Source: Argentina anserina | Lineage: Eukaryota > Streptophyta > Magnoliopsida > Rosales > Rosaceae | Direction: 5' to 3' | DNA length: 64,000 nt | Assembly (NCBI RefSeq): GCF_933775445.1 | Contig: NC_065874.1 | Location: forward strand, 29,830,501 to 29,894,500 | Part shown: one piece after another, positions 6,596 to 45,549 of the stretch | Layout: every line of letters begins with the position of its first letter | How positions within the stretch are numbered: position 1 is the first letter of the stretch | Position numbers and translations under genes: made by a program | Notes under the pieces: model-generated | Seen by the model: the letters and a program-made list of their open reading frames with translations, nothing else | What the model was told of the DNA's origin: nothing | Database searches by the model: none

Positions 6596-7852
6596 TTTTG
6601 CTTTTAGAATTCGAAATTGTTACAATGGTGTTGCCTGTGTACTTACCGTAGATCTTGTCAACTATATATAAGGTACAAATGCTGTAAGCTCATTGATTGG
6701 AGCTAGCTACTACTAAATGGGTTCCACAAGGGATGAAATGGTAATGAAATCACAGCCTCAATGGCAGCAGGAAATGCAGTAAAGATGAAGCTAAAATCTT
6801 GTTGACAACCGAAGCTGATATCAGAGTGGTTCCTGATATAGCGGATTTACTCACAGGGTTGGTGAACTTTCCCTGAACTCGTTTTTCGAATATAAAGTTT
6901 ATATACTTGAGTAAGTACGAATCTTTTTTGGGATTGTTCTTTCTATTTCTTACACTAACTTTAACTGACTGTGATAATATTTTCAACCTCTTTCTCTTTC
7001 TCTTTTAGACTAAAGAATTTTTTCTTTTCTTTTTTCGGAAGTTTATCTACTTGGACTGCAATAATTCTTGCAATCTTTTCTCCCTTTCTAGTCAATAAAG
7101 AAAATATATTTTTCCTTTTTAGAGTATTTTGCATTAGTTTAGAGTAAAAGTTTAGACCATTTTTCTTGTCGGTAACTAGTTCCGGCTGGTTCTTAGTTTC
7201 GGCATCTCAATGAAAAATACATTCATTTACTTCAATATGCTATTTAACTACTGGTGGTAAATTATTTGTTACTACTTGCTTTAGAACCAGGCTTTTGCGA
7301 GTTCAAAACTTAGATATCAGGGTTAAAAGTACTGCATGCCAACTTATCCAAAGCATTCTCATGTATTTATACCTCTTTATTTCTAACTGGGGTACAATGG
7401 CTCTGATTCAAGGCATTGTTGACATAATTGACATTACTGTGGCTAGGGTACCTGGTTTCTAGACTACCGGTTTAGAACTATTTCACATGGGTCTCGTCAA
7501 GGATTAGTCACATACCTGAGGAATTACCTTCGACCGTGAGAATATCCTGATGTCCGGTTTCTGGACTGGCCTCTCCGCTTCGATATGCAATGATGTACCA
7601 CCGTGAGACATTAGAGGGTTTTCCTCCGTTAGATTTACCTTCAGACCCCACATAGAAAATGTCTAAGAACTCGAAAAAAAAAACAAAATTATTAGCAAGT
7701 TGATTTCTCGTTCTTGGTTGTGTGGAACCGTAAATTTGACCATTTTGTAAATAGAAGGTAAAAAATAGAAAACAAAATTAAAAAAGTAAATACACTGCGC
7801 CAGTGAACGACCGTAAAGAGAAAACCCCAAAGTCTAAACACGACTAAACCCC
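6596..7852 (+). repeat. Direct duplication, copy 1 (1.26 kb)
   Basis: By line-by-line reading this copy matches 24036-25291 with only two differences: C at 7627 versus T at 25067, and an A run of 10 (7674-7683) versus 9. The left boundary is at TTTTGCTTTTAG and the right at GACTAAACCCC. The copies are in the same orientation, 17.44 kb apart. Copy 1 lies downstream of Elongin C and is followed at once by different sequence (CGAGAATTATTC). The ends are not TG...CA, so these are not ordinary LTRs. A 78-codon open frame on the minus strand is identical in both copies but resembles nothing I know. Confidence 0.95.
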
Positions 7853-8634
7853 CGAGAATTATTCAGTGCACGGCCCGTGCTTATACACTGGCCATCTTAG
7901 CCGTCGAATCAGCCGCGTGGAAAAAAAAATTTCTCTGTAATATCAAGTAATTATGGATGGAATTGAACGGAGTTAGTGTCGGTGGTGGTAAAATCAGTCA
8001 AATAAAGGGTAGATCTAATAAAGAAAAGGGTAAGGATGAGAGACGGGATAGGGATATTTATCATACATGATCAGACAAATCGTCTTCAGTTGAAAGTAGA
8101 ATGAATAAGGTTTAGAGAAGAGATTTATATAGTTGTAGGAGATTGGATAATGGTGCGGTAGGAATTTGGTGTCCACCATTTTCCGCCACTGAACGCAACC
8201 TTGCAGCGGATAGTTATAATCATGGAAGGCAATCTCTGAAACGTAAGGTATGATGTAAATTTTAATTTATGGGTTGCAGCAAGTGTATGTATTATATAGA
8301 GATACGGTTGTTTTGTTAGGATCTTACTGTGCCGATTGGAATTTTTCGCATTTTAGGTTTATTTAGTGACCTCACCTGTTTAAGGTTAATCGTAGTCTTA
8401 ATGTGAGGCTTAAATATGAACATGGTTAGTTTTCTCTGCATTATTTTGGAGATTTTGATATCTCAAAGCAGTGTTAGTTGGTTGTCTAAGATATTGATGA
8501 TATGGTGTCACCCAGTCTAGCTGTGTGAGGAAGTTTTATTGTTGTGGAAGAACTAGGCGGTGAGGGGAAGCATAAATTTAGATTTTATAATGGTCATTTG
8601 TTCTGTTGTGTATGCAGAGCATTGGATTATAGTT
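7853..8634. other. Flank upstream of the FRS/MULE transposase remnant
   Basis: No coding sequence is seen. Near 7867-7884 is a small imperfect palindrome (GTGCACGGCCCGTGC). This may be the left end of the transposon that carried the transposase, but I could not find a matching inverted terminal repeat near the right side of the block. Confidence 0.4.
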
Positions 8635-11362
8635 ATGGAGTCCACTGAGCTGAGTTCATTTTAGCTGAACAACATCCCATCTATCGATAATGCAAACACA
8701 ACATTTTCAGTTGATGACAATGTGAATGGAGATTCACTGCCTTTTATGCAAGAGGGCGACGATAGGGAATTGGGTTATGATTATGAATGCCTGATGTTCA
8801 ACGGTAAACCTTACGAAGACCTGACTCTATATGACATGAAGAACGTTAAGTTTGCCAGTCAAGAGGAAATCGAGTCGTTCTATGCCCACTATTCATTGGC
8901 AAAGGGGTTTAGTATGAGGAAGCACAGGTTGGAGTAGAACCGTAATAAGTCAGCAGTTATCCAAAGACTAATGGTTTGTTCCAGACAAGGGGAGCGCAAT
9001 GTTAGCAGTGATGATTTTGGTAGTGATCCTGATGTTGAAAGTGAGTCGGAGGAAGACCCTTACGTTGATAAGAGGATGAGGAATAATGAAAAACGGCCGC
9101 GGCTTTCCAACCTGGATGAAAATGATAGGGTCTTATGTTCCGGGAACCCGCGAAGAAATCGGCCAACAAAGACCCGACGCCTTTCAAGGTGCCACTGTCT
9201 TGCCCAGATAACCTTTAAAAAGGAGAGATTGGGGACTTCATTCTATGTTTCCGAATTTGTAACTGAACACAGCCATCCACTGACAAGGTGGAACCAGAAG
9301 CATTTTGTTAGGTCCAATCGTGTTGTTAAGGAGCACGACATTGCTCAGGTCATGTCCATACGACAAGTATCTGTTGGGACTGCCCGTGCTTATGAGTTTC
9401 TTGTCCATCAAGCCGAGGGTCAGGAATTTGTTGGGTTTACAGAAAGAGACCTGTACAACAGGGTTCAACAGGAGCACACAAAGCTGATGATGGACGGTGA
9501 TGCTCAAGCCTCAATTAGTTGGATGAACTCTAAAGCCATTAGGGACCCCAATTTCTTTTGCAATTTCAGCGTAGATGAAAGTGGAAGGCTAGCAAACATG
9601 TTCTGGCGAGATGGACAATCCTATGAGGATTATTGTTCTTGTGGGGACATTTTGATATTTGACAGTACTTACAAAACAAATATTTATGATAAGCCTCTGG
9701 CCGTTTTTGTGGGAACCAACAATCATAGAGGTACTATTATTTTCGGGTGTGCACTTTTGGCTGATGAAACTGAGGAGACATACAACTGGGTACTGACCTC
9801 TTTTTTAAAAGTCTATGAATGATAAGAAGCCAGTATCTGTTGTGACCGACAGCGACGAAACAATGAGAAACGCTGTTCTAACTGTCATGCCGGAGGCCAC
9901 ACACCGTCTATGCGCATGGCATGTCGGGAGGAATGTTAAATCTCACTTGAAGGAAGAAGATATGCAAAAAGACTTCTTCCACCTTATATTTGCAGGGCTT
10001 AGTATTCCAGAGTGGGAGGCTTCATGGGAGTATTTTGTGGCGATGAACAAGTTAGAAGACAATAGTTGGGTAATTAGAATGTATGGTAAAAGAGAGATGT
10101 GGGCAGAAGCTTTTTTTCGAACCTCTTTTTTTGGGGGGATTTGTAGTACACAGAAGTGTGAGGGGATGCACAGAAATCTGAAGATTGGTCTGGGCAGTTG
10201 TATAAGGCTGTATGAGTTGCTTCCCCGGCTTGATAAAACTATTGCATGAATAAGAAATCGCGGTCTCTATGACGATTACTTGTCCCACCAGTTTTCTCCT
10301 GTTTTTAAATCCCACCTCCGTGGTATGGAACAAGAGATTGGAAGTTTGTTTACTCAAGATGTATTCCTACTGCTAAGAGATCAGATTTATTTTGAGCCGA
10401 AGTTCATACTAACCGGCAAGGTTCCGGATTTAGGTATCACAGTTATCTGCATCTCACAATATGGTAAAGTGGAGAGGACATGGGAGGTCAGGTTCCAGGG
10501 TGGCCGAGAGAACCCAATTTTATCATGTTCGTGCAAATTGTTTGAGTCTGATGGCATTCCATACTGCCACATGTTCCTGGCGATGAAATCTGAGAATGTG
10601 ACTACATTTCCCCATTCCTTAGTTAAGAAGAGGTGGACAAAAGAAGGCGTTGATTGTGTGGAAAATGACCACAATGTTTATAGGAAGGTTATGCAGCAGG
10701 CCAGGTACGGTGAACTAATGTCTGCATGTGCCAAGATATGCCACATTGCGTCACACAGTGATGAAGGCTATGACACTATTAAGGAAGCCCTGAATGACCT
10801 AACCATAGACGCGCGCAACCTACCTCAACCGAGAGAGACAGATTCTCTTGTCTATGTTGATGAAGCAACCAGATCAACCGACCTTCATCCTAATGTAATA
10901 AGAGACCCCGTGACCTGCCGCAGTAAGGGGAAAAAGTCTAAACCAACTAAAGGGCAGGGGAACGTGAAGAAAAGAAGGACCTGTTCAAAATGTGGAGTGG
11001 TTGGGCATGACTGTCGCACTTGTCTTGGAGTTGGTTCCCATGTGAATTTGTCAACTGCCGAACCAGATATCAGTGTTGGTGCTACAGGGAATAATAGTCC
11101 TCAGCGCTGTAGTAGCGTGGCTGATGGTAGTTGTTCATCAGATTGCTCTGATACTGAGGCTGATGAGTTGGTTGAAGAAGCTGACAGGTTGAACAGTGAT
11201 ACATATTCCCTAATTCATAACAAAGAGGAAGCCATGTCTTTTGACTTTATAACCGGTGTGGTTAACAACAATTCACCCTCGAGATCCAGCAGCTGTGAAA
11301 TCGGAGATGTAGGGGGAGATTATTGGAGGTTCTACCGATCGTTTCCTAACATCCTGCCGTGA
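8635..11362 (+). pseudogene. FAR1-related (FRS) / MULE transposase-like gene, broken
   Basis: An intronless frame runs from ATG 8635 to TGA 11360-11362, interrupted by TAG 8662-8664, TAG 8935-8937, a frameshift near 9810-9817 and TGA 10247-10249. Domains in order: FAR1-type zinc-binding DNA-binding region (SFYAHYSLAKGFSMRKHRLE ... CSRQGERN ... RCHCLAQITF ... TEHSHPL), the MULE/DDE core (IFDSTYKTNIYDKPLAVFVG, then VSVVTDSDETMRNAVL and HRLCAWHVGRN), a SWIM zinc finger (CSCKLFESDGIPYCHMF) and a C-terminal CCHC knuckle (CSKCGVVGHDCRTC). FRS proteins are domesticated Mutator-like transposases, and FHY3/FAR1 act as phytochrome-pathway transcription factors. Whether this one was a transposase or a host FRS gene is unclear; the neighbouring Ulp1-type remnant favours a transposon. 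Apart from the lesions it is near full length, suggesting recent inactivation. Confidence 0.85.
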
Positions 11363-12452
11363 TACGAGCACGTACCACTCACAGAAAAGGTAATTCAATC
11401 ATTTATATCAGAAAGTTGGTGTGAAAAATTTGTAGAACTGATTAGTTGCTGGCATGGCTTATATCTCTCCAACAGGGTCATGATAATTGAATTTGTTGTA
11501 AGTTTTTCCCAATTCTGTATTTTTAGCCGAGCTCGTATAACCCACTTCCTTGACGTCATTGTTATTTGCTATTATAAAACAACACGAAGTTTGTACACTA
11601 ATCTACTTCAGTAGGCTATGTGTTTTGACAGTTTTGATTTTGACAGATGAATGGTTGCAGGGTCCTGGTGGTAACGAAGGAATGCCCCCATTCAAAGTCA
11701 TAGAAATTGACATGTACTGATTAATGTTCCATGTTAAGTTCTCATATCTTGATCCAACTTATTTAATCTTATTATTGTAAAACTATGTTGTTGAAATATG
11801 TTGACACTCAGGGGGTGATAGGTGGTGAATATTTTGTTGAAGGTTCCTGTATTATTTGTGTGACATTTAATTCCCAATACTTATGATATTGGTTGACAAT
11901 CTGGAGTACTTAGCTGATGAGTTACAATTGTTGCTTCATTTCTTTCCATTTTAAATCAGGATGTAAACTTCACTTCTTTAAATTTTTATCTGAGGACGAA
12001 CACTTAATTTGTTTCCTAATGATATCAGGATTGCTCCCCTTCCACCCACAGTGGTAGTCTATCATGTAACGAATCAAGTCAATGTAGGTATAATAGTAAT
12101 TAAGCCTAATATTGGTTGATATTAAAATAACAACTTGTTTGCAGTAAGCATATAGTTTGCATACAAACCTGTTGCATTGTAAAAACCTCTACCATAATGT
12201 TTTTGCATTGCAACAACTTGACTACCGAACATAGCCAGTAGGGGGCCTAGAGTGATTACCCAAACAAAATTATCTCCAAAATCGAATAATAATCCCCGCA
12301 AAGTAAGGATATTTAACACTATCATTGTTTGGGGAAGGGGGGGCACCGCATACTTGCACCATCTTTTTTGATCTGGATTCACCTGGTAACAAAAAGTAAT
12401 CCATCAAACTGTATAACTCCTCCCCATAAACCTTTCAATTGAACTAACGAGA
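11363..12452. other. Spacer between the transposase remnant and the Ulp1-like remnant
   Basis: AT-rich, with no domain recognised on either strand. It lies between two convergent broken genes, so it may hold their 3' ends. An open frame at 12122-12382 on the minus strand has no recognisable similarity. Confidence 0.4.
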
Positions 12453-13796
12453 TCATTTCTTCCTCCCCCTCTTTTTGGTGTGGAGGCAACTTGTATCGTC
12501 CGATGAAATTTTAACAAGTGATGTATCCTGGATATTAATTGGCTCTTTCAATGTTGCGCCTTTACCTGGTTCTGTTCCCCCGTGGTTTAGATTTTGTTTT
12601 TTTTGCTGTTGTTTTTTCTCTTCAGCCATTTTGACCGTACTGTCCCTTCTTCCTTTCCATCGGAGAAGTGACCTTTCCACCTTGTCATGCAGATCAACAA
12701 CCTCATTTTTCGGATGCATTAGCAGTTTAATGATCAACTTTGCTCGCTCCTTGTCTGAATCATACTGCCATGCACATTCATTGTTTTATATTCAAAAATG
12801 TACAACAATATTTCTCTTTGAAAATTGAACATTGTATAAATTCTATCAATTAGACTTCACCTATTACCTGTTCACCCCATGGTCCTTGTGGATCCTCCAT
12901 ATTGTTTATGGTAAACACACCATAGTCTGCACCATTCGGCTGAAGCAGTGCCTTTGGATCATATGTCCAAGGAAATTCAGACATCATCGACAGAGGCACC
13001 ATGAAGTTTACAATGTCATTTAGTAGTATGTTGTCCAGAAGATCCACCTTCAACACATCAACAAATTATAAGTAGTGGAGAATTATGCAGATCACATATG
13101 TTTAAGTTATTAGTAACGCTTATTATTTACAGTTATGTATCTATATATTTGAAATTTTTACCACGGCTTTTGCGGCACGGCGTCTTGGAAGCAACGTACT
13201 GTCTGACGAGGCACTATCAAGTAATTCCATATATCGTTGCTTGACATGAATAATAAGCAAGTACCAGTGGCCAAGATCCCCATTCTCTTTAGGCTCATTG
13301 ATTGGAACAAAAATCTGGGGCACCATAGTAGGGTTGTATCAAACAATATCACAATAAATTTAAATTTAAGTTATATTTACCTAATAATTTCGTAGATTGA
13401 TCATCAATAGCACAATCTTCTGTTAAGCATTGCATAATTTAAACTTCCTCTTATCCTAATGCAATCTTCAAATTTTCCAATGAACCTGTACATGCGGCTA
13501 ACAGTAGATACATGGTCAATCCACTTGTCATATGATGTTTTCATATCTTTCCCTTTAGTTGCAGCTTCCTGATAATGCCATTTGAACTGTTGTAAATATA
13601 TTATCCGAAGCATATATTTACAACAAATATGGAAGGTGGAAGGTGGATGTATAAGCAAGCCACGTACCGAAATGAATGTTGGAAGGTACCAGTCGCCTCC
13701 TCCGTTGTTCATAATGTTCGCAAAGGTGTTGATAACCTGCATTCTCGTCGTTATAATCATGTCCACACTGTACTGATAACCTAGACTAGTATACAT
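12453..13796 (-). pseudogene. Ulp1-type (C48) cysteine protease-like gene, catalytic Cys replaced
   Basis: Several minus-strand segments with plausible splice sites read as one plant Ulp1-like gene. They are MQVINTFANIMNN ... DWYLPTFIS (about 13796-13668), WHYQEAATKGKDMKTSYDKW (to about 13480), then IFVPINEPKENGDLGHWYLL ... YMELLDS (13326-13160). Next come NFMVPLSMMSEFPWTYDP ... GADYGVFTINNMEDPQGPW (about 13050-12870) and a basic, Gln-rich tail (12767-12453, YDSDKERAKLIIKLLMHP). The family uses a His-Asp-Cys triad to cleave SUMO. Here His (GHWYL) and Asp (LLDS) are present, but the position normally Cys in DCG reads DYG, with the Tyr codon at 12922-12924. Proteolysis is therefore not expected. 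Ulp1 domains are often carried by plant Mutator-like elements, which fits the nearby MULE transposase. Confidence 0.72.
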
Positions 13797-13837
13797 TCTG
13801 ATGTCTTTTGTTTAAAGAATTAAAGTGACATTATTAA

Positions 13838-14493
13838 CACACCACCAGATCTTTTAGCTTCTTTAATATAAGTGAAATGTCCATCAAATTGTTGTTTCAG
13901 GTCTGTCGATTCTTTGTCCACAACTACCTCAATTTTCAAAGAGCGCCAACAAAAAGAAAAAAATTCAAATCAGTTCAGCAATCTTCTATTGCCTCAAGTA
14001 TTATGATATGCAGTACATTTTGATTAAGTGAATGCATGTGGATCAGTACTTAGCAACTCCATAAATGACAACAAAGTTGAACAATTATCACAACGATACA
14101 AAACAAAAGAACAGATCATGCAAACTGGAGTTCAGCAACCTAGAAAAAGAGTAGAGCAATATAAAATTGAAAGATGACAAGCAGTGATTACCATTCAAGA
14201 CCTCATACACGAATTCATCTCGATAAGCAGAAGCCAATGAACTACCAACGGTCAAAATGTGAGTGATGTTCAACTTCTTAAGTCCATCTCTGTTATGTGC
14301 AGCTCCAATTGATCCCAAGAAGAGACCCTGCGAAATGAAGACATCAAAAGACCCTCAACTGCTGAATCGAGCACTATAAAAACAATTCAAAAGGTCAATA
14401 ATGTAAATGACTGATAAAGTCAATTCACATGATCAAAGAACCTCTTCAATCTTGCTTCCTAAGGGATTCATCCATCGGATCCATCACTAGTCC
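13838..14493 (-). pseudogene. Dual-specificity phosphatase (DSPTP1-like) gene fragment, three exons, no catalytic loop
   Basis: Three minus-strand pieces with consensus splice sites give a partial plant dual-specificity phosphatase. The first is MNPLGSKIEE (14471-14442, in an exon beginning at about 14493), the second GLFLGSIGAAHNRDG ... NITHILTVGSSL ... DEFVYEVLN (14327-14192). The third is VVDKESTDLKQQFDGHFTYI ... AKRSGGV (13923 to about 13838). In the intact family the next residues would be the HCxxGxxRS phosphate-binding loop, and the sequence stops just before it. It therefore looks like a captured or truncated 5' part of a phosphatase gene with introns retained. It sits between a ClpP-like exon upstream and the Ulp1-like gene downstream, all on one strand. 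Confidence 0.75.
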
Positions 14494-14675
14494 CTACAAA
14501 GAGTACAACAACCAAAGTGAGCGAGATTTCAAATCATCATCGACTCGTTGGGACAATTAGATCGAGAGTTGTGAAATTAAAAGGATTGAAGAACAACTCG
14601 TAATTATAACCTAATCAAACAAAAACCCAAGAAGATGATTCTCTAATCAAACAAAACCCCAAGGGAGGGAGACAC

Positions 14676-14921
14676 CTGAGAGCCCAAGAAGATGATTCTT
14701 TGGAAGAGAAGCGTGTTGGTGGTGTCGAGCTCTTCGAATCTGGGGACACATGGCAAAGCAGCAGCAGCAACAACATCTGCGAATTGAAAATCCGAATTGG
14801 TGGACAAGGTGGGTCTTGTGCGCGACGATGAAGCCGCTTTGACCAGAATGACGCGCCTTGATGCGGGGGTGGGAGAGGGAGGCGCCGATGGAAGAACCCA
14901 GATCTGAAGAGTGAGATTCCT
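14676..14921 (-). pseudogene. ClpP3-like plastid Clp protease subunit, first-exon fragment
   Basis: An open stretch of 82 codons on the minus strand (stop TAA just upstream, donor GT at 14675-14674) reads as a Ser/Arg-rich, transit-peptide-like region (SRRVILVKAASSSRTRPTLS). It then reads PRFEELDTTNTLLFQRIIFL followed by GSQ, the conserved N-terminus of the ClpP3-type subunit of the chloroplast Clp protease. There is no in-frame ATG, and the catalytic Ser-His-Asp exons are absent. A different frame over the same DNA is open for 125 codons (14647-15024) but does not carry the homology. This is one gene's 5' exon cut out of context, most simply explained by transposon capture. Whether it is spliced to the phosphatase exons downstream is unknown. 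Confidence 0.75.
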
Positions 14922-14999
14922 TTAAAAAGAAAAGAAGAAGAGTGGGATTAAATGGAGGAAACGAAACTTCTGCAAATTTCGTTTGAAATTTACCCAAAT

Positions 15000-15465
15000 T
15001 TTCGGCGGAATCAAAGACCGCCATATTTGAGAGAGAAATTCCAAATTAGAAGTGTTGTGGGGCGCGATTCAGATCGTTAGATCTATCCCTATCTAACGGC
15101 TTAGATAGTCAATCCGCGTCATGTCTCTTTATTGGCTGAAGTGTTATTTTGTTAAATCCATGTATTTTTGATGTTATCTTTTCGATTTTATTCTTATATT
15201 TTCACTTTCATTCAACACAAATTTCTCTTGATTATCCCTCATTCCCTCGAGCCACTTAAATAGAATGAAATTATGAAATTATTACTTGTACTATAATGCT
15301 AAGATACATTTTGATTTAACAATTTAAAGTAACATTTTTTTTCTAAATTAGTCGCAATCTTAATTCAATTTTACTCATCTAATTATTTTACTTAAATTTC
15401 AAATTTAATATTAATATCATTGTCACTTAATTCGTCTTGAATAAGACGAAAGCATGCTATTTAGC
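15000..15465 (-). repeat. Promoter-like segment shared with the CACTA element at 45 kb (copy A)
   Basis: Read on the minus strand, this segment aligns collinearly with 44680-45165 on the plus strand. Shared landmarks in order are GAATTAAGTGA / TAATTAAGTGA, TTTGAAATTTAAG, TAATTTAGAAAAA, CTTAGCAT, GGATAATCAAGA, GTTGAATGAAAGTGAAAATAT, and an ATGGCGG...CCGCC stem followed by AAACGAAATTTGC. Identity is moderate with small indels. In copy A it lies directly upstream of the ClpP-like exon, so it could be that gene's captured promoter or a long terminal repeat of the capturing element. Confidence 0.75.
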
Positions 15466-15494
15466 CTTTTTTATTTATGACCTTCAATTGAAAT

Positions 15495-16073
15495 TAGGGA
15501 TGACAATGTGCATGGTAGGATAAGGCCGTAAGGGGATCAAAATACCATACACATACCCAATTTCAATTACGTCAACATACCCGCCCCAATCTCTGTTAGA
15601 AAGTAATAGGTATTCCACGTCCCTATACCCGCTAGGGATCCGTTTCTCATACCCGCTTCAATACCCGTTAATAAAATTTTGTTATATTATATAAAAATTT
15701 ATATGAGTGTATAACAAACGTAAAATCTAAAATGAAAACTAAATATTATGATGAAATTAGTTTTTTTTTACATTAATCCAACTAAAACCAATATAAGTCT
15801 AGTTCAAAATAAAATTAACTATAAAAAAGTATTTATTTACATAAATATAAATTAATTAATTAATATTAAAACATATATAATATATATTTTATTCTTATTG
15901 GGTGGGGATATGAATGAGAATGGGGATCAAAATATCATCCACACCCGTTACCCGATTCCATATTTCGAATATAGGGGATCTGCATACCCGTTCCCCGTTT
16001 TTACCCATTACACAGCCTTATTAGGGTCGAATACCCGTAATACCCTACTCAATGGATAATATTGTCATCCCTA
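15495..16073 (+). mobile_element. Non-autonomous hAT-like element (579 bp)
   Basis: The ends are inverted: TAGGGATGACAAT at 15495 and ATTGTCATCCCTA ending at 16073. They are flanked by 8-bp near-duplicates ATTGAAAT (15487-15494) and ATTGAACT (16074-16081), 7 of 8 matching. The interior is AT-rich, with many ATACCCG/CGGGTA words near both ends and no coding capacity. End sequence and 8-bp duplication fit hAT-superfamily MITEs. Confidence 0.8.
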
Positions 16074-16175
16074 ATTGAACTACGCTATTGACCCATTTAA
16101 AAAAATTGAAAAAGTTTTAAACGCCCACGCGACTCTAGTTAGAGATGTATTATGTGAATCAGGGTTGACCACATA

Positions 16176-16485
16176 GATCGAGACCCAAACGAATATGGAA
16201 ATTGGTAAATTTCATACCGTACCCGTACTTGTACCTGTACTTTAGTGTGACGATCACATCCAACGGTCGGAGTTTAATTTTGAGAATATTGATCACGTGA
16301 ATCACAATGTGCCCTCTAATGTTGCATAACATTTCTAGTTTGTTTTGTGAAAAAGTATATGTTTACAAACTAATTATACTACCGAAATAATATTTTCAAA
16401 AATCGACTGTCTGATATTGTCACCATTGTTTACAATGTATGTGGTAGAAAATTCATCACTTTTCGTTAATGTTTGGGTCTCGATC
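16176..16485. repeat. Imperfect inverted repeat, possible small foldback/MITE
   Basis: GATCGAGACCCAAAC at 16176-16190 is the exact reverse complement of 16471-16485, and weaker pairing extends inward. No clear target duplication was found, so the class is open. Confidence 0.5.
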
Positions 16486-16859
16486 CACACGATTAGCTCT
16501 TTATTTCTCATTTTTTCCTAAGGGCATCTGTGTTACCCATATATAATTATCTTGAAAATTTAGATTTAGTCGATAGAGCGCGTCACTATGAGTGTGTGGT
16601 AATTTTTTTTGAAATTTTTTGGGCAAAGTGAAAAAATGGGAGCTGTTGTGTTGTCAAAAAATTGAGAGAAAAAGAGTGAGTGGGCTGGCAAGCTTAAGAG
16701 ATGAGAGAAGAGAAGTTGAGTTAATCGAATGGGCTCGGGTCTTGAATTTTAAAAGAGGAAAGAGCTGGGCTTGGGGTTTCTCAAAGCCAAATAGGCCTAA
16801 TTCATATCTTTAAATCAATAAAACAATTTGGAAAACATTCTCAAAAATGTCATATATAA

Positions 16860-18560
16860 ATTTGAGTTTTAGAATACAGTCGATTGATACCAGCCAATGT
16901 GATTGGTATATATATTTACAGACCCTGTAAAAAATTTCATCTGATTTAGATGTTGTTGGACCGTCTGATGCATCGGTTAACGGTAATATCATGTTAATAT
17001 CCATATTTGACCACATTTGACCGCAACTTCCACTTTAGGGGTTCCGTGAGGCGACACTACATGTTGTATGGAAAACAATATGCCGTTTCAAGTGTGTCGT
17101 CTGCGGCCATCCGGTCCCTCCCAGGCACATCGTCCCCTTTAGGAGGGTTTAGGGTGGTTTAGCGTTTACTAAATAGTCCAATGGCCGAACAAGTCCTGAC
17201 TGGGACCAAATGTTTACACGTCGCCCACGTAATAGGAAGGGAAGCATCGGCTGGCACCGATCATTAACCTCTCTTCCGTAATCGAAAAGTATTTCAAGAT
17301 CCCCCAATTTCTCATTAAGCAAGCTATTTAGGTTAGTAAATATTAGGTCACACCTTGAGACTCATGATCTCGACGGCTGGATAGGGTCGATCGGCACCAG
17401 CCGATACGTTCAGTATATCTATTAAGGATATCTGGTGAAATTTCGTAGGATTTGGATGTCGTTGGACCGTCTGATGCATCAGTCAACGGTAATATCATGT
17501 TAATATTCATATTTGACCTTATTTGACCGCGGCCTCCGCTTAAGGGGTTCCGTGAGGCGACGCCACACGTTGTACTGGAAAAAATAGGTCGTTCTAAATG
17601 TGCTGGGCACGCCCCTCCGCTCCCCTCTGAGGACGTCACCTTTCTTAGGGGGGTTTAAGGTAGTTTAGGATTGACCGAATAGTACGACGGCCGAACGAGT
17701 CCCGATTGAGACCAAATTTTTATACGCCGCCCACGTAATAGAAGGGAGACATCGACTGGGCCCGATCGTTGACCTCTTTTCCGTAATTGAAAAGTATTTG
17801 TCAAGATCCCCAAATTTATTATTAAGCAAGCTATTTAGGTTAGTAAATATTAGGTCACACCTTGGGACTCGTGATCCCGACAGCCGGATATTGTTGATCG
17901 GCACCATCCGATATGTTTAATATATATATATATATATATATTAAGAATCCCTGGTGAGATTTTGTAGGATTTGGATGTCGTTGAACTGTCTGATATATCG
18001 GTTAACGGTAATATCATGTTAATATCCATATTTGACCGCGGCCTCCGCTTTAGGGGTTCCGCGAGGCGACACTACACGTCATACGAGAAACAATAGGCCG
18101 TTCTAAATGTGCCAGGTGCGGCTCTCCATCCCCCTCCGAGTACGTCGCCCCCCTTAGGGGGGTTTAGGGTGGTTTAGCATTGACCGAAGAGTCTGACGGC
18201 CGAACGAGTCCCAATTAGGACCAAATTTTTTCATGTCGCCCACGTAATAGGAAGGAATGCATCAGCTGTCCCCGATCATCGTAATTACAAAGTATTTCAA
18301 GATCCCCCATTCCTACTAAGCAAGCTATTTAGGTAGTAAACATTAGGTCACACCTTGGCCCTCGTAATTATGACGGCCTAATACGATCGATCGGCACCAT
18401 CTGATATGTTAAATATATATTTTAAGGATCCCCGGTGAAAAATTGTAGGATTTGAATGTCGTTGAACCGTCTGATACATCGGTCAACGATAATATCATGT
18501 TAATAGCCATATATTGACTGCATTTGACCGTGGCCTCCGCTTTAAATGTTCCGCGAGGTG
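16860..18560 (+). repeat. Tandem array of ~500-bp units, subfamily I (about 3.5 units)
   Basis: The anchor word GGTAATATCATGTTAATA recurs at about 16982, 17488, 18007 and 18488, giving periods of about 506, 519 and 481 bp. Each unit also repeats GGACCGTCTGATGCATC, GGGGTTCCG(C/T)GAGGCGAC, GGTTTAGGGTGGTTTAG, GCCCACGTAATAGGAAGG and GGTCACACCTTG in the same order. Copies have diverged by point changes and small indels. No coding capacity is seen. The unit head is recognisably related to subfamily II immediately downstream. Confidence 0.85.
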
Positions 18561-20150
18561 ACGCCGCACATTATACGAAAAAAAATGAGATATAAAATTC
18601 TAACTTTAAAATTAGAAAAAATAATAATTCAAAAAAAATTGCACAACCCTAACCCCGAAACTCCGAACCCTATACCACCCGATGTGATTGTCATATATAG
18701 TAAAACACATGGTAAAAAATTCTTTTGATTTGACGATTGTTTGACCGTCCGTAAGTGGAGTCAACCGAAAAATAGCCCGATTGTTTGACTGTCCGGGATT
18801 GTTTGACTTTTTTTTTAATTCGACTGCTTACACTCAGTCGCGAGTATTATGTGGTTGGGGAAATGTAAAACCCGCTCAGTCATCGCCCCCGGTGATGGCT
18901 CCACCCATAGAGCATATTAATATTTTTTCGGTTGACCCGAATAACGGACGGTCAAACGAGCCCGAAATGAGATGAAATTTTTACCATGCGCATAATAATA
19001 TGTACCGATAACATTGAGTGGTGTCCATTGGATACAAGAAAATTCTTCCATATAGTTGTTTCATAATACTACATATTTTTTATTTAAACATAGTTAAAAT
19101 GTTATACAAAATTAGTGAATACTTTGTTGATCACGAACTTAAGTTCAATGATGAAAAATCAACACAACCCGATGTGGTTGTCATATATAGTAAAACACGT
19201 GGTAAAAATTTCATTCGATTTGACGATTGTTTGACTGTCCGTAATTGGAGTCAACCGAAAAATATGCCGATTTACCAAATGGAAATGCTGTGACCATATC
19301 CTTCCGGAATTGTTTTTTTTCGAATTCGACCTCTCATACTCAGTCACGAGTATTATGTGGTTGGGGGAATGTAAAATCTATTTGGTCATCGGCCCCAAGT
19401 GATGGCTTCACCCATAGAGCATATTAGTATTTTTTTCGGTTAACTCGAATAACAGAAGGTCAAACGAGCCTAAAATGGGATGAAATTTTATCACGCGCGT
19501 AGTTATATGTACCGATGTCATTGGCTGGTGTCGATTGAGTATGAGACATTTCCTCCATATAGTTGCTTCATAATGCTACATGTTTATTTAAATCTAGTTA
19601 AAATGTTATACAATATTAGTGGACACTTTGTTGATCACGAATTTAAGTCCAACGTATGGAAAATTGACACTATTTGATGTGATCGACATATATAATAAAA
19701 CACGTGGTAAAAATTTCATCTGATTTGGGTATTGTTTGTCTGTCCGTAAGTGGAGTCAACCGAAAAATATGTCGATTTACCAAACGGAAACCCTTTGACT
19801 GAATCTTTCCGGAATTGTTTTTTTTTTAATTCAACTAGACACACTCAGTCGTGAGTATTATGTAGTTGGGTAAATGTAAAAGCCGGTCGGTCATCGACAC
19901 CTGGTGATGGCTCCACCCATAGAGCATATTAATATTTTCGGTTGACCCGAATTACGGACGGTTAAACGAGGCCGAAATGAGATGAAATTTTTACCACATA
20001 TGTAATTATATGTACCGATGGCATCAGGTGGTGTTGATTGTACATGAGACATTTTATCCATATAGTTGCTTCATAATGTACATGTTTATTTAAACCTAGT
20101 TAAAATGTTATACTACATTAGTGGATACTCTATTAATCATGAACTATAAA
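18561..20150 (+). repeat. Tandem array of ~500-bp units, subfamily II (about 3 units)
   Basis: The anchor GATGTG(A/G)TTGTCATATATA occurs at about 18681, 19171 and, diverged, 19676 (periods 490 and 505 bp). Each unit repeats a GTTTGACTGTCCGTAA-like word, CTCAGTCGCGAGTATTATGT, GATGGCTCCACCCATAGAGC and ACGGACGGTCAAACGAGCC. Compared with subfamily I, the order of a GATGTGATTG head, a GACCGTC core and a ...AACGAGTCC/GAGCCC...AAATTTTTA block is conserved. The two blocks therefore probably descend from one satellite-like unit. Confidence 0.82.
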
Positions 20151-20305
20151 GGCATTGAGAGGCTCTTGGGTTAATGGGTTATGAGGGAGCTGCGAAATCA
20201 TGTACTTCCATACGTAACTATAAAGCAGTGGAGTCTCAATCGTAATATTAAGCAGTGGAGTCTCAAGTATATAACTCATTTCATTGCTTGGTACTATGTT
20301 ACACC

Positions 20306-21005
20306 CAATGGTCTAAATAACGGTTATCGGCATCGTATCGGTTTTGTAAAATAAGGATATAACGGGGATATATCGAGATATATCGGATTATATCGGATTT
20401 ATCGTTTTTGCTAATTTTTAATTAAATTTAATATAATTATAAAAATATACATCAAAATATACCAAATAAACTTGAGAAATTAAAACTTATAGAAGTATAT
20501 CTACTAAATAAACTTCATAAAAAATTATTTAATTATTTTGACAATTAAAATACATAAATAATATTAATTAATAAAAATAAAGGTGATCATTCATCATAAA
20601 CTCTCTCGTCATTGAATGTTATCAACGAAACTTTCATTTTTTTTAAATTATTTTTTCAAAACGACGTGGTTTTAAAAAAATATTTTAAAAAAGGGCACCG
20701 ATATATCGGGTTAAACAAAGATGATCATTCATCATAAACGCTCTCGTCATTGAATGTTATCAACAAAATTTTCATTTTCTTTAAATTATTTTTTCAAAAC
20801 AACGTGGTTTTAAAAAAAAAATATTTTAAAAAAAGGGCACCGATATATCGGGTCAAACTCGGTTTGACCCGATATATCGTCATTTGACTTGATTTTTCGG
20901 GTTGACAGATATAATAGACCGATAAGCAACTTATCGTATCGTTTTCTTAATATTAGGGATATATCGGGGATATATCGAGGATATATCGGGATATTTAGCA
21001 CATTG
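20306..21005 (+). mobile_element. Non-autonomous hAT-like element rich in ATATATCGG words (700 bp)
   Basis: A perfect 8-bp target duplication GTTACACC flanks it (20298-20305 and 21006-21013). The ends are imperfect inverted repeats: CAATGGTCTAAATA at the left and TATTTAGCACATTG at the right. Near both ends are repeated GGATATATCGGGG words. The interior has an about 138-bp tandem duplication (about 20582-20719 and 20720-20860). A second family member is at 55402-55991. No transposase is encoded. Confidence 0.88.
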
Positions 21006-21013
21006 GTTACACC

Positions 21014-23900
21014 AGTGAGTCAGAAGCAGCAATAGTATGAGAGACGACACAAAAAACATACATTTCATGAGCTATGTAATAAACAAAAGACATAAACAAA
21101 CTGATGTAAAAATATAAAACTTCGTTAATCGAACTGGAGCAGAATCCAGAATCAGTTTATTGAATGGCAAAATGAAACAGTAGGAACTTCACCATAATAT
21201 ATAATTTACATTGTTATAAGCCTAAAACCATAAAACCACAAATGAAAGCAAAAACAATGAATACAAAAGATCTGACAAAGGATAGCACCCACAACAATAG
21301 CTTCATACTTCATAGTGTTTGAGCCGTGAAAGTCTTTGTTCACAAGCAGTCCCGCACAACATTCCCTGCAGAATATACAAGCAAGACAGGTGAAAGCCAT
21401 CCAATAGAATGGATCCAATATTCTCATTTCCTTGAACATGCTACAAATTTTAACAACACAGATAGAAACAAAGAAACCTATGATAAAGACAATAACTAAG
21501 GATTTTTATTATCTGGATCTTTAGACGGTAAAGATGTTAATACAAAGGTAAGATAAATGTGACCTCTGCCACAAATGCAGTGGGGTAGCAAAGAGATTCA
21601 AAATTTGTTGTACCAATACTAGGGTCACTTATACCTATTCAGGCATCAGTTAAAACTTACAACACATGGATGCTCAATAAATGCCACGAGGACTCCAAGA
21701 AAATTTAATACCATTTTTGAGAGGGAAATTGACTGCTGCATTTGACCACACCAACTTGCCCTCAGTTGTGTATAACAACATGTCTATAGCCATTTTGAAC
21801 CCATGACTCGCAATGCTCTATGTGCCAGCAGACTAGGTCTCTTTCTAATTAAAATAAAGTGGCAGAATCAACCACACTATCATTAGAGGGCAAGGTGTGT
21901 GTGTTTTGTGGCTGGGGGAAATGGTGAAACTAGTGACATAGAAAGAATGTGATTCATGTACTTACCAATATTCATTGTAAAGAACAAAATTAACCATATC
22001 TGATGTGGATAGAACTTCAAAACTCAATTGGGGTATAGACTATAAAAGACTAAACAGAAATTTAATTATGAATTCTGAATGGCTCAAATTTTTTATATTT
22101 GAGAAAATGACAGGGGAAAATAAAACAGAAAAAAAATTCCACAACTTTTCATATTTTGCTGTAAATACATTTGTCCAGGGTGACTTTTATACAAATAAAC
22201 ATTAAACTGAAGAACATGCACACTAAAAATCAAATTGGGAATTCAACTTATTACAATAAATTATCAGGGCCAATATTATAATCTTATGCCTTAGTCTATG
22301 GTAAATGTTCATACAACAATTTTGGCTCCAGAGCACTCACATTTTTTCTTATAAGAGTTTAGGAACGGTATATCTAACATGCATTAAACTGCAGTATCTT
22401 GAACCAAGCTATTTCCAAAATCACTTGAGATAGAACAATCTAGAGGTTGAACTAATTACATGAGTCTCAGGTACCATAACAAGAAGCTAATATTGAAAAC
22501 AGAGTATATATATGTTCACACTTGCTAACACGAAAATAGTAAGAATAGTTGATTCTAAAAAATTCACAAAAGAAAAATAGCAATAGATGTACACAGTACC
22601 ACCCAGATTACTCACATTTTCGGTTTTGTTTTCTTCTTTACAAATATATACATACATATATATATATATAAGTATATTATACACTACAATAAATTACAAG
22701 ATATATGATGAATGCAAGTAATAAAGATATGACATTCAAATGGCTCAAACCTAGTATCAAGGTTCCTCAGCAGAAAACAAGTTGAAGGATTGATAAACTT
22801 TGCTCTGGTAGTCAGAATAGATTCTTGGTTGTCCATCCCTGAACAATGGCTCAAAACATTAGTTATAACACTCACAATACTAAGAAAACAAACAGAAATA
22901 TACTGCTCATTCCACGAGGAAAGAACTATACTTGGCTCACCATCAGGTCAGAAATAACATATTCATAATCAAATAATTCCACCACGAAAGCTTAAAACTA
23001 GAAAATCAATTGTGAACAATCTAAGCCATTACTAATTCATATAAATAAGGAACGAACCCAACTTTGGTTCAGCTCAGTCATTATACAAAAAACCATTAGA
23101 CCTAAAACAAGTTCAATTCCAAACCCGGGTTAAACCAAGTACACTTTCATAACATCAATATCAAAGAGTGAAGATCAACAAATTCCAAAGCAAAGCTCAG
23201 AACTTAAAGACATACCCAATTCAAATTTCACAATACAAACACAAACCCACTTAAAATCTTTGCAGCTTATTTTCATGAGCCCCAAAATCGAAAATGTCAA
23301 ACAAAGAACATAATCTAAATTAAGAACACATACATGCTAATAGACATGGTCAATCTCGAATTACAGAACAATCAAAGTTCGGTAAATCATCCCCTCTCCA
23401 TTTTCTCCTTACCCAGACGACTCAGTTGACCACATTTCAAAGCCGCGTCTCATTTACCTCAAAATCCAGACCGGACCTTTGCATAATCAAACACACAAAC
23501 AGACCGAGTTGAGGGAGAGGGTTGTTTGTGTGTGAGTGAGAGTGAGAGTGCTGTGAGATATGAGGGACTCTCGCACGTATGAGGGAACAAAGTCACGCTG
23601 CATCCTCTGCAACGCTGCACAATAGACGAATCCCTTTAATATGCACCGGAATCGGTGTACTTCAGCTCGGTCGCCGGCGGCACGAAGAGCTTCTCGACCG
23701 GGATTTTGAATTGGGCATGGAAATCTTTTGAGTGCTATTTCGATGCGGGATTTTGGTAGAGGTGAGGTGCGGATGGGTTCTGAGATTGAGAGGGGTGGAT
23801 TTGAGAGAGGAGAAGAAGATGGGGTTTACACACTTTTAAAGAAAGATCACTGAATGGTAAAAGCCTAATTAACCGTACTAACGGGATCAGATTTGGCCGT
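21014..23900. other. Intergenic stretch, no gene recognised
   Basis: AT-rich with only short open frames. Around 23450-23800 the composition is less AT-rich and, on the minus strand, looks like a 5' UTR or first exon with a possible donor (GAGGTAAATG). I could not follow a coding frame into downstream exons or recognise a product. A non-coding transcript on the minus strand is possible but unsupported. Confidence 0.35.
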
Positions 23901-23902
23901 CT

Positions 23903-24035
23903 CCCCAAATGTTAAGTGACACCTCAGCTTTTTTGACCCGTGTATATACACGAGTCGTGTATGGAATAGGACACCTCAGCTTTTTGAGCCGTGTATGGAA
24001 TAGGACACCCCAAATGTTAAGTGACACCTCAGCTT
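23903..24035 (+). repeat. Local tandem duplication at the left edge of duplication copy 2
   Basis: The words CCAAATGTTAAGTGACACCTCAG and CCGTGTAT...GGAATAGGACACC occur two to three times within about 130 bp, directly left of the TTTTGCTTTTAG boundary of the 1.26-kb duplication. Such short repeated patches are typical of repair synthesis at a break junction. Confidence 0.75.
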
Positions 24036-44413: not shown

Positions 44414-44679
44414 TATTTAACCTATGTTCCTTTAACCTTTGTAGTAGATAATTATATTAAATTTTGATAACTAATTCTAATTAAAAATTGATATTGAAAA
44501 TTCAATCCATTTCATTCTATTATTTTAGTTACTTTGATTTAGCTTATTAACAATATATGTATCGATGAATAAGGCAACCTTCCTAAAAAATATATGACTA
44601 TATATATACTATGTATTGATAGCATATATATTTCCATTGAAGTTCATAAATAATAACGACTATTCTTCTTCCAAAATTA

Positions 44680-45165
44680 AAGACTAATTAAGTGATAGTT
44701 GTATAAATTAAAGTTTGAAATTTAAGTTTTATTAATTAAATAAGAAAGTCAATTTTATTTCGTAGGTGATTACGGATAATTTAGAAAAATATATGATACT
44801 TTAATTTAGTAATTTAACAAATATCTTAGCATCAGTGTACGAATTATGAGATTAATTTTCATTTCATTCAAGTATCCCAAAGGATAATCAAGATAAATGT
44901 GTGTGTTGAATGAAAGTGAAAATATAAAAAATAAAATCGGAAAAAATATATATGGATTTTACTTAGCAACACATTAGCCAATATGAAGACATGGCGCGGA
45001 TGGATTGTCTGAGCCATCATATTGGCCCAGATCTAACGATTTGAATCGCCTCACAACACTTCAAATTCCAAATTTCATTTTCACACACCCTCAATTATGG
45101 CGGTTTTAGTTCCGCCAAAAATTTGGGCAAATTTTCAAACGAAATTTGCCAAACTTTTTGTTTCC
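44680..45165 (+). repeat. Promoter-like segment shared with the ClpP-fragment region (copy B)
   Basis: Collinear with the reverse complement of 15000-15465 (landmarks are listed in that entry). Here it lies inside a CACTA element, and the homology fades after AAACGAAATTTGCC. Downstream (45260-45500) is a C/T-rich leader-like region with a possible acceptor (TTTTGCAG at about 45263), but no ClpP-like reading frame is present. Confidence 0.75.
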
Positions 45166-45549
45166 TTCTTCATTTATTGCCATTAAAATTTGGGCAAATC
45201 CTCTCATTCTTCTTCTCTATTGCCATTAAAATTCTCTCATCTTGTTTCTCTTTGATTTTGCAGATCGATCAGCTTGAAGGCTTTGGAAAAAGGAGGTCCT
45301 GGGTAAATCGATCACCACTGATTCCAAACTCATCTCTCTCCCACTCTCACCCTCACTCTCACTCATCAGATATGTCTCTTCTTTCTCCTCCTCTTTTCAC
45401 ACCTCCTCACTGCCGCTGTCTCCCTTTGCCTACCCTCTTTAGATCTAGATTTATCTATCCCCACTCCATCGGCACCTCCCCTTCTTCCTTGTGTTCTTAA
45501 TTTTTTATGCTAAGGTTTGTTTCTTTATGAATTGTGTAGATCAAAATTT

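What the first reader, a model, noticed from the sequence alone, without database searches (positions are those of the whole stretch)
12453..14921. ClpP - dual-specificity phosphatase - Ulp1 gene pieces lined up on one strand with usable splice sites
Reading the minus strand from 14921: a ClpP3-like N-terminal exon ends at a GT donor. Phosphatase exons with introns follow and stop just before the catalytic loop, and then come the exons of a Ulp1-type protease. Parts of three unrelated genes share one orientation within 2.5 kb, with a promoter-like segment upstream. This fits transduplication by a Mutator-like (Ulp1-carrying) element, and splicing could in principle produce a chimeric transcript. 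I know of no described protein combining these three.
Basis: partly seen in the sequence, partly recalled or inferred. Interest (0 to 1): 0.82.

Follow-up and report, generated by a model that had tools for sequence, protein, structure and literature searches.

The report
Recombinant Mutator transposon carrying gene scraps
A plant jumping gene that had picked up pieces of two ordinary genes has been fused, in this one place, to half of a related jumping gene carrying a Ulp1-type protease gene; the pieces look broken, so the three-gene row is probably a scar of transposon recombination and not a new protein.

Summary
The pieces are really there: part of a ClpP first exon, dual-specificity phosphatase (DSP) exons with parental splice sites, then Ulp1 exons, on the minus strand. 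They are not one three-gene capture. ClpP and DSP fragments form an older two-gene chimera found at 4 places in this genome; parent genes lie on C7 and C4. Two copies read end to end are Mutator-like elements (MULEs) of 11.1 and 12.2 kb with exact 9-bp target-site duplications and no detectable transposase or Ulp1. The Ulp1 exons belong to a FAR1-type MULE (transposase 8665-11362, plus strand; end at 7853) whose closest copy, on C5, shows no ClpP-DSP. The two meet at 13835/13836: there the phosphatase loses its catalytic loop, present in the three other copies, and Ulp1 its 5' exons. Best reading: a recombinant MULE, Pack-MULE 5' half plus Ulp1-MULE 3' half. A chimeric protein is unlikely: DSP exon A is frameshifted, no Met lies in the ClpP frame here, the Ulp1 D-C-G Cys is Tyr, the transposase frame is broken. 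Transcription could not be tested.

The parts
7853..13835 (+). 3' part of an Ulp1/FAR1-type MULE; terminus CGAGAATTATTCAGTGCACGG at 7853; truncated inside the Ulp1 gene at 13835
   Evidence: 96-97% identical to C5:16195250-16200750 over 7853-13364; the terminus resembles the 3' ends of C1a (81% over 36 nt) and, by eye, C3b
8665..11362 (+). FAR1/MULE transposase pseudogene: in-frame stops at 8935 and 10247, frame change near 9809-9820
   Evidence: Pfam MULE 1.2e-12 and 4.6e-8, FAR1 3.2e-7; stops
12453..13742 (-). Ulp1 (C48) protease exons (about 13742-13665, 13568-13449, 13338-13162, 13065-12868, 12785-12453); 5' exons missing
12922..12924 (-). TAT (Tyr) codon where the two other Ulp1 copies read have the Cys of D-C-G (taken as the catalytic Cys from recalled knowledge of C48 proteases)
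   Evidence: window DYGVF, C5 near copy DCGVF, C5 distant copy DCGIC
13835..13836 (.). junction between the two elements
   Evidence: DSP homology of 3 other copies and the parent continues past it; window sequence does not
13836..13923 (-). DSP exon C, truncated before the HCx5R loop
14192..14327 (-). DSP exon B (GLFLGSIGAAHNRD...)
14442..14493 (-). DSP exon A with a 65-nt deletion relative to the C4 parent (between GCA repeats), giving a frameshift and stop
   Evidence: BLAST coordinates; alignment and splice test; deletion length computed by hand from those coordinates
14495..14579 (-). captured DSP 5' sequence (86% to C4:14483900-14483983)
14662..14858 (-). ClpP exon-1 fragment and start of its intron, from C7:4354159-4354358; lacks the start codon and about the first 44 residues of the parent frame
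14859..15494 (-). MULE-family leader; main match block 14956-15494
   Evidence: 83% to C6:35521418-35521907 and 68-72% to 5 further loci over most of the block; compared
15495..16073 (.). high-copy repeat of about 580 bp beside the leader; C1a shares it
   Evidence: 31 other places listed (40 of 1241 candidates scored); C1a colinear across it
16085..20145 (.). tandem arrays (monomers of about 507 and 490 bp, plus one 16085-16625 unit that is repeated in C1 and C3b)
23831..24035 (-). 5' terminal region of the Pack-MULE side: last family-like terminus near 23977, then about 58 bp of rearranged terminal sequence
   Evidence: 82% to the C1a 5' end over 74 nt
6596..7852 (.). 1257-bp flanking direct repeat, copy 1, abutting the MULE terminus
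   Evidence: 99.84% to copy 2; no other near-identical copy (40 of 106 candidates scored)
24036..25291 (.). 1256-bp flanking direct repeat, copy 2

Best explanation
This is a recombinant Mutator-like element. Its 5' half (13836 to about 23977, read from the right) is a non-autonomous Pack-MULE whose ancestor captured the 3' part of a ClpP first exon and, behind it, genomic DNA of a DSP gene, downstream of a family leader sequence. Its 3' half (7853-13835) is a FAR1-type MULE with an antisense Ulp1 gene. The halves were joined at 13835/13836, most likely by template switching or end joining while a transposon-induced break was repaired. The cargo and Ulp1 share a strand because both lie between the element's 5' end and its transposase, pointing the same way. 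Shown: parents, copies, 9-bp duplications in two copies, junction, broken frames. Inferred: that 13836 to 23977 is one element half, the repair mechanism, the order of events, and that nothing here makes protein.
For: The two halves have different closest relatives: 13835-18583 is colinear with C1a (C1:19405726-19410421) at 90%, 93% in the chimera itself; 7853-13364 is colinear with C5 at 96-97%. C1a (C1:19401235-19413482) has 9-bp duplications TAAAGAGAC and C3b (C3:12794519-12805626) TAATTTTTG. The 3 other ClpP-DSP copies and the C4 parent continue past 13836 into VHCFVGKS[RK]R; the continuation is absent from the 64-kb window. A related Ulp1 element, C5:10558595-10565629, has further 5' Ulp1 exons missing from the window. 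The C1a 3' end and the transposase-side end of that element are homologous (73% over 649 nt; 75% over 333), and its transposase is 73% identical to the window's, so both halves are of one family.
Against: C1a is colinear with the window only to 18583; 18584-23830 has other relatives and several high-copy repeats, so that the 5' half is one continuous element is inferred from its two ends. No close copy of the Ulp1 element is intact across 13365-13835, so microhomology at the junction cannot be tested. The window's left terminus matches C1a's over only 36 nt. The right terminus is rearranged and a canonical 9-bp duplication around the composite cannot be shown independently. Simple deletion between two neighbouring elements would leave the same junction.
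Confidence: 0.7

Rival explanations
1. One autonomous Ulp1-MULE captured ClpP and DSP in a single lineage. C1a, C1b and C3b are deletion derivatives, and the window copy only suffered an internal deletion between DSP and Ulp1.
For: The termini belong to one family; cargo and Ulp1 occupy the same side and strand.
Against: The stretch between DSP and the 3' terminus in C1a, C1b and C3b has no match to Ulp1 5' or 3' exons or to transposase at 1e-2. The C5 Ulp1 copy has no ClpP-DSP match in the 10 kb read. The two halves differ in closest relative.
Confidence: 0.12
2. Two separate MULE insertions became neighbours and a deletion fused them; the 16-kb stretch never was a single element.
For: The junction is found once; both genes are truncated there; there is no clean 9-bp duplication at the right edge; 18584-23830 is a patchwork.
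Against: The outer ends are one 3'-type and one 5'-type terminus of one family, as expected of one element; two chance neighbours would need matching order and orientation.
Confidence: 0.14
3. A working chimeric gene: ClpP N-terminus spliced to phosphatase and Ulp1.
For: Parental splice sites are kept, and skipping exon A joins ClpP FLGSQ in frame to DSP GLFLGS. Between window and C1a, 4 synonymous and 3 nonsynonymous changes (dN/dS about 0.2) would fit constraint, on few changes.
Against: Exon A is frameshifted; there is no Met in the ClpP frame before the conserved segment in 3 of 4 copies, and the fourth, C3b, has lost the exon-B acceptor and the start of exon C. The other 9 of 10 pairs, 4 of them against the parent, show dN/dS from about 0.3 to 3. 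The catalytic loop and the Ulp1 D-C-G Cys are lost here.
Confidence: 0.03

Closest known systems
Pack-MULEs (non-autonomous MULEs with captured gene fragments)
   Same: Gene fragments with introns from two unrelated host genes inside an element with 9-bp target-site duplications and without detectable transposase; decayed
   Different: Terminal repeats are short and imperfect and long tandem arrays lie on the 5' side; the window copy has lost its own 3' half
KAONASHI / Ulp1-carrying MULEs (Arabidopsis, grapevine, melon, rice; passages of PMC2528002 and PMC13317346 seen)
   Same: Ulp1 in reverse orientation to the transposase inside a MULE, as PMC2528002 describes for KI-MULEs
   Different: The transposase here carries a FAR1 domain, which recalled knowledge links to Jittery-like elements; PMC2528002 reports Ulp sequences in both MuDR-like and Jittery-like grapevine families. 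The window Ulp1 has a 5' truncation and Cys to Tyr

Membership tests
Mutator-like elements (MULE) | MULE transposase domain (related element or window) | tested here: met
   PF10551 1.2e-12 and 4.6e-8 in window 8938-10249
Mutator-like elements (MULE) | 9-11 bp target-site duplication | tested here: met
   9 of 9 bp in C1a and in C3b, 2 of 2 copies with both ends read; C1b's 5' end was not read; the window composite itself could not be tested
Mutator-like elements (MULE) | terminal inverted repeats | tested here: inconclusive
   Short imperfect similarity of termini by eye (C3b GAGAGCTTATTTGGTACACGG against CGAAACTTATTCGGTGCACGG); for C1a BLAST finds only a 12-nt stretch between its ends at the termini
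Pack-MULE | captured host gene fragments with an identifiable parent | tested here: met
   C7 ClpP and C4 DSP parents
Pack-MULE | no transposase in the element | tested here: met
   No tblastn match in the C1 and C3b stretches read at 1e-2; not met for the window composite, which carries a broken transposase
Ulp1-MULE (KAONASHI-like) | C48 domain antisense to the transposase in one element | tested here: met
   Window and both C5 copies
Ulp1-MULE (KAONASHI-like) | non-TIR VANDAL-type MULE lineage | not tested
   No transposase tree was built
Chimeric protein-coding gene | open frame with start codon across the pieces | tested here: not met
   No Met before the conserved segment in the ClpP frame in the window; exon A frameshift

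The most novel reading that the evidence does not exclude
The recombinant moved as one unit. A Pack-MULE half and an Ulp1-MULE half of the same family joined, keeping one 5' and one 3' terminus, and the 16-kb composite then transposed into this site. A later break at its right end, perhaps a failed excision, was patched by copying 1257 bp from beside its left end plus scrambled terminal sequence. MULEs would then shuffle cargo between elements by exchanging halves.
Probability: 0.25. Interest if true: 0.5.

Novelty: new member of a known kind. Interest (0 to 1): 0.3.

Why it matters
It gives a resolved case of how gene fragments come to sit together: two captures in one Pack-MULE, amplification to several copies, then recombination with a related element. 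It also cautions that a neat row of same-strand exons with usable splice sites need not be a gene. If composite MULEs stay mobile, inter-element recombination would be a route for shuffling captured exons.

Tried and rejected
LTR retrotransposon for the 6596-7852 / 24036-25291 direct repeat: rejected, since its ends are not TG..CA and only these two near-identical copies were found. Helitron as vehicle: set aside once 9-bp duplications were found. Simple nesting of the Ulp1-MULE inside the ClpP-DSP copy: rejected, because the DSP continuation is not elsewhere in the window. Leader as terminal inverted repeat: rejected; no close inverted pair was seen among the listed copies. Chloroplast-targeted phosphatase from the ClpP presequence: rejected, because the capture starts downstream of the parent start codon. 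Reading the distant C5 element's 5' side for the leader: uninformative; no leader match, and its outer part matches sequence in the other C5 locus instead. Literature: searches, seen as listings; only passages of PMC13317346 and PMC2528002 were seen; search 56 for Pack-MULE with dual specificity phosphatase found 0 papers.

Full report
Observation. The window lies in an unnamed 237-Mb genome (G000:C3:29830501-29894500) whose genes and transposons are plant-like. The ClpP fragment (14858-14662) is 87% identical to a gene on C7, whose spliced product hits CLP_protease at 1.1e-70; the fragment alone matches no family or structure. The phosphatase exons match human DUSP19 at about 1e-12, score below Pfam's cut-off for DSPc, and match a DSP gene on C4 at 82-96% DNA identity. 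Of 4 Ulp1 exon frames scanned, 1 hits Peptidase_C48, at 1e-5. The splice sites are the parents' own.

Copies. ClpP and DSP occur joined at 4 of the places listed (its counts are lower bounds): the window, C1a (C1:19408785 on, 93%), C1b (C1:19413483 on, 88%) and C3b (C3:12799448 on, 88%). In C1a, C1b and C3b, and in the C4 parent, DSP homology runs on past window 13836 through HCFVGKS[RK]R; C1a has K for the R of that motif. Sequence shared with the parent ends near C4:14485662. The window copy alone is cut, and the continuation is absent from the 64 kb.

Vehicle. C1a begins at C1:19401235 and ends at 19413482 with TAAAGAGAC on both sides; it sits inside C1b, and the window shows the unfilled site. 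C3b runs 12794519-12805626 with TAATTTTTG on both sides. These are 2 of 2 copies with both ends read; C1b's 5' end was not read. tblastn with transposase and Ulp1 peptides finds nothing in the C1 or C3b stretches at 1e-2. So the ClpP-DSP chimera rides a Pack-MULE of 11-12 kb.

Second element. On the plus strand, 8665-11362 encodes a FAR1/MULE transposase with in-frame stops at 8935 and 10247 and a frame change near 9809-9820. With the antisense Ulp1 gene it forms an element that is 96-97% identical to C5:16195250-16200750 over 7853-13364. That C5 copy is itself cut at the point equivalent to 13364 by other sequence. A more distant relative (C5:10558595-10565629, 73% in the transposase) has Ulp1 5' exons that the window lacks. 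Its transposase-side end matches the C1a 3' end at 73% over 649 nt, so both vehicles are of one family.

Junction. At 13835/13836 the DSP gene loses its 3' part and the Ulp1 gene its 5' part. The sequence 13340-13835 has no other close copy, so the arrangement appears unique in this assembly. The outer ends are a 3'-type terminus at 7853 (81% to C1a over 36 nt) and a 5'-type terminus near 23977 (82% over 74 nt), as in one element; hence the recombinant reading. Against it: C1a is colinear only to 18583, and 18584-23830 is a patchwork with high-copy repeats. Deletion between neighbours is not excluded.

Coding capacity. Relative to the parent, DSP exon A lacks 65 nt in the window (computed by hand). 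The gap is shared by the four copies; C1b and C3b lack 9 nt more nearby and C3b has one extra base. Splicing ClpP to exon A runs into a stop in the window, C1a and C1b, and reads the following exon out of frame in C3b. Skipping exon A makes an in-frame joint in all four, but C3b has lost that acceptor's AG, and C1b and C3b carry one extra base near the end of exon B. No Met precedes the conserved ClpP segment in that frame in 3 of 4 copies; C3b has one. Over exon B and part of exon C, the 6 pairs among the four copies give dN/dS of about 0.2 (window against C1a, 7 changes), 0.7, 0.8, 1.4, 1.7 and 3 (C1b against C3b, 12 changes); the 4 pairs with the parent give 0.3-0.7. This does not suggest steady constraint on the copies, but numbers are small. 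The window Ulp1 has Tyr where the two C5 copies have Cys.

Known context. PMC2528002 (passages) describes KI-MULEs with Ulp in reverse orientation to mudrA, and Ulp in MuDR-like and Jittery-like grapevine MULEs. PMC13317346 (passages) reviews transduplication and says the most common fate of captured sequence is pseudogenization or loss. What is found here fits that picture. I know of no report of this ClpP-DSP pair, but only search 56 addressed it, in an open-access library.

Noticed in passing
window 6596-7852 and 24036-25291: A 1257-bp direct repeat, 99.84% identical and found near-identical only here, flanks the whole composite. Copy 1 abuts the MULE terminus; both copies end in CTAAACCCC. 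It may be a repair scar of a break at the element's right end.
   Followed up: partly
window 23978-24035: About 58 bp of rearranged terminal sequence between the last family-like terminus and repeat copy 2, like templated filler DNA.
   Followed up: partly
window 44630-45166: Another copy of the MULE-family leader (about 71%), in the opposite orientation, part of a 3-kb repeat with 95-98% identical copies on C1.
   Followed up: no
window 15495-16073: A repeat of about 580 bp; one search lists 31 other places at 82-88% identity, with only 40 of 1241 candidates scored.
   Followed up: no
G000:C1:19400861-19419156: One ClpP-DSP Pack-MULE (C1a) inserted into the leader of another (C1b), with a 9-bp duplication.
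   Followed up: yes
G000:C3:17328137-17334351, C5:12591486-12594351, C2:8692583-8696598: Sequence like the window's tandem arrays lies near sequence like the 7853 terminus or the transposase; by the listed strands its orientation is opposite to the window's at C3 and C5 and mixed at C2. Possibly arrays in long terminal repeats.
   Followed up: no
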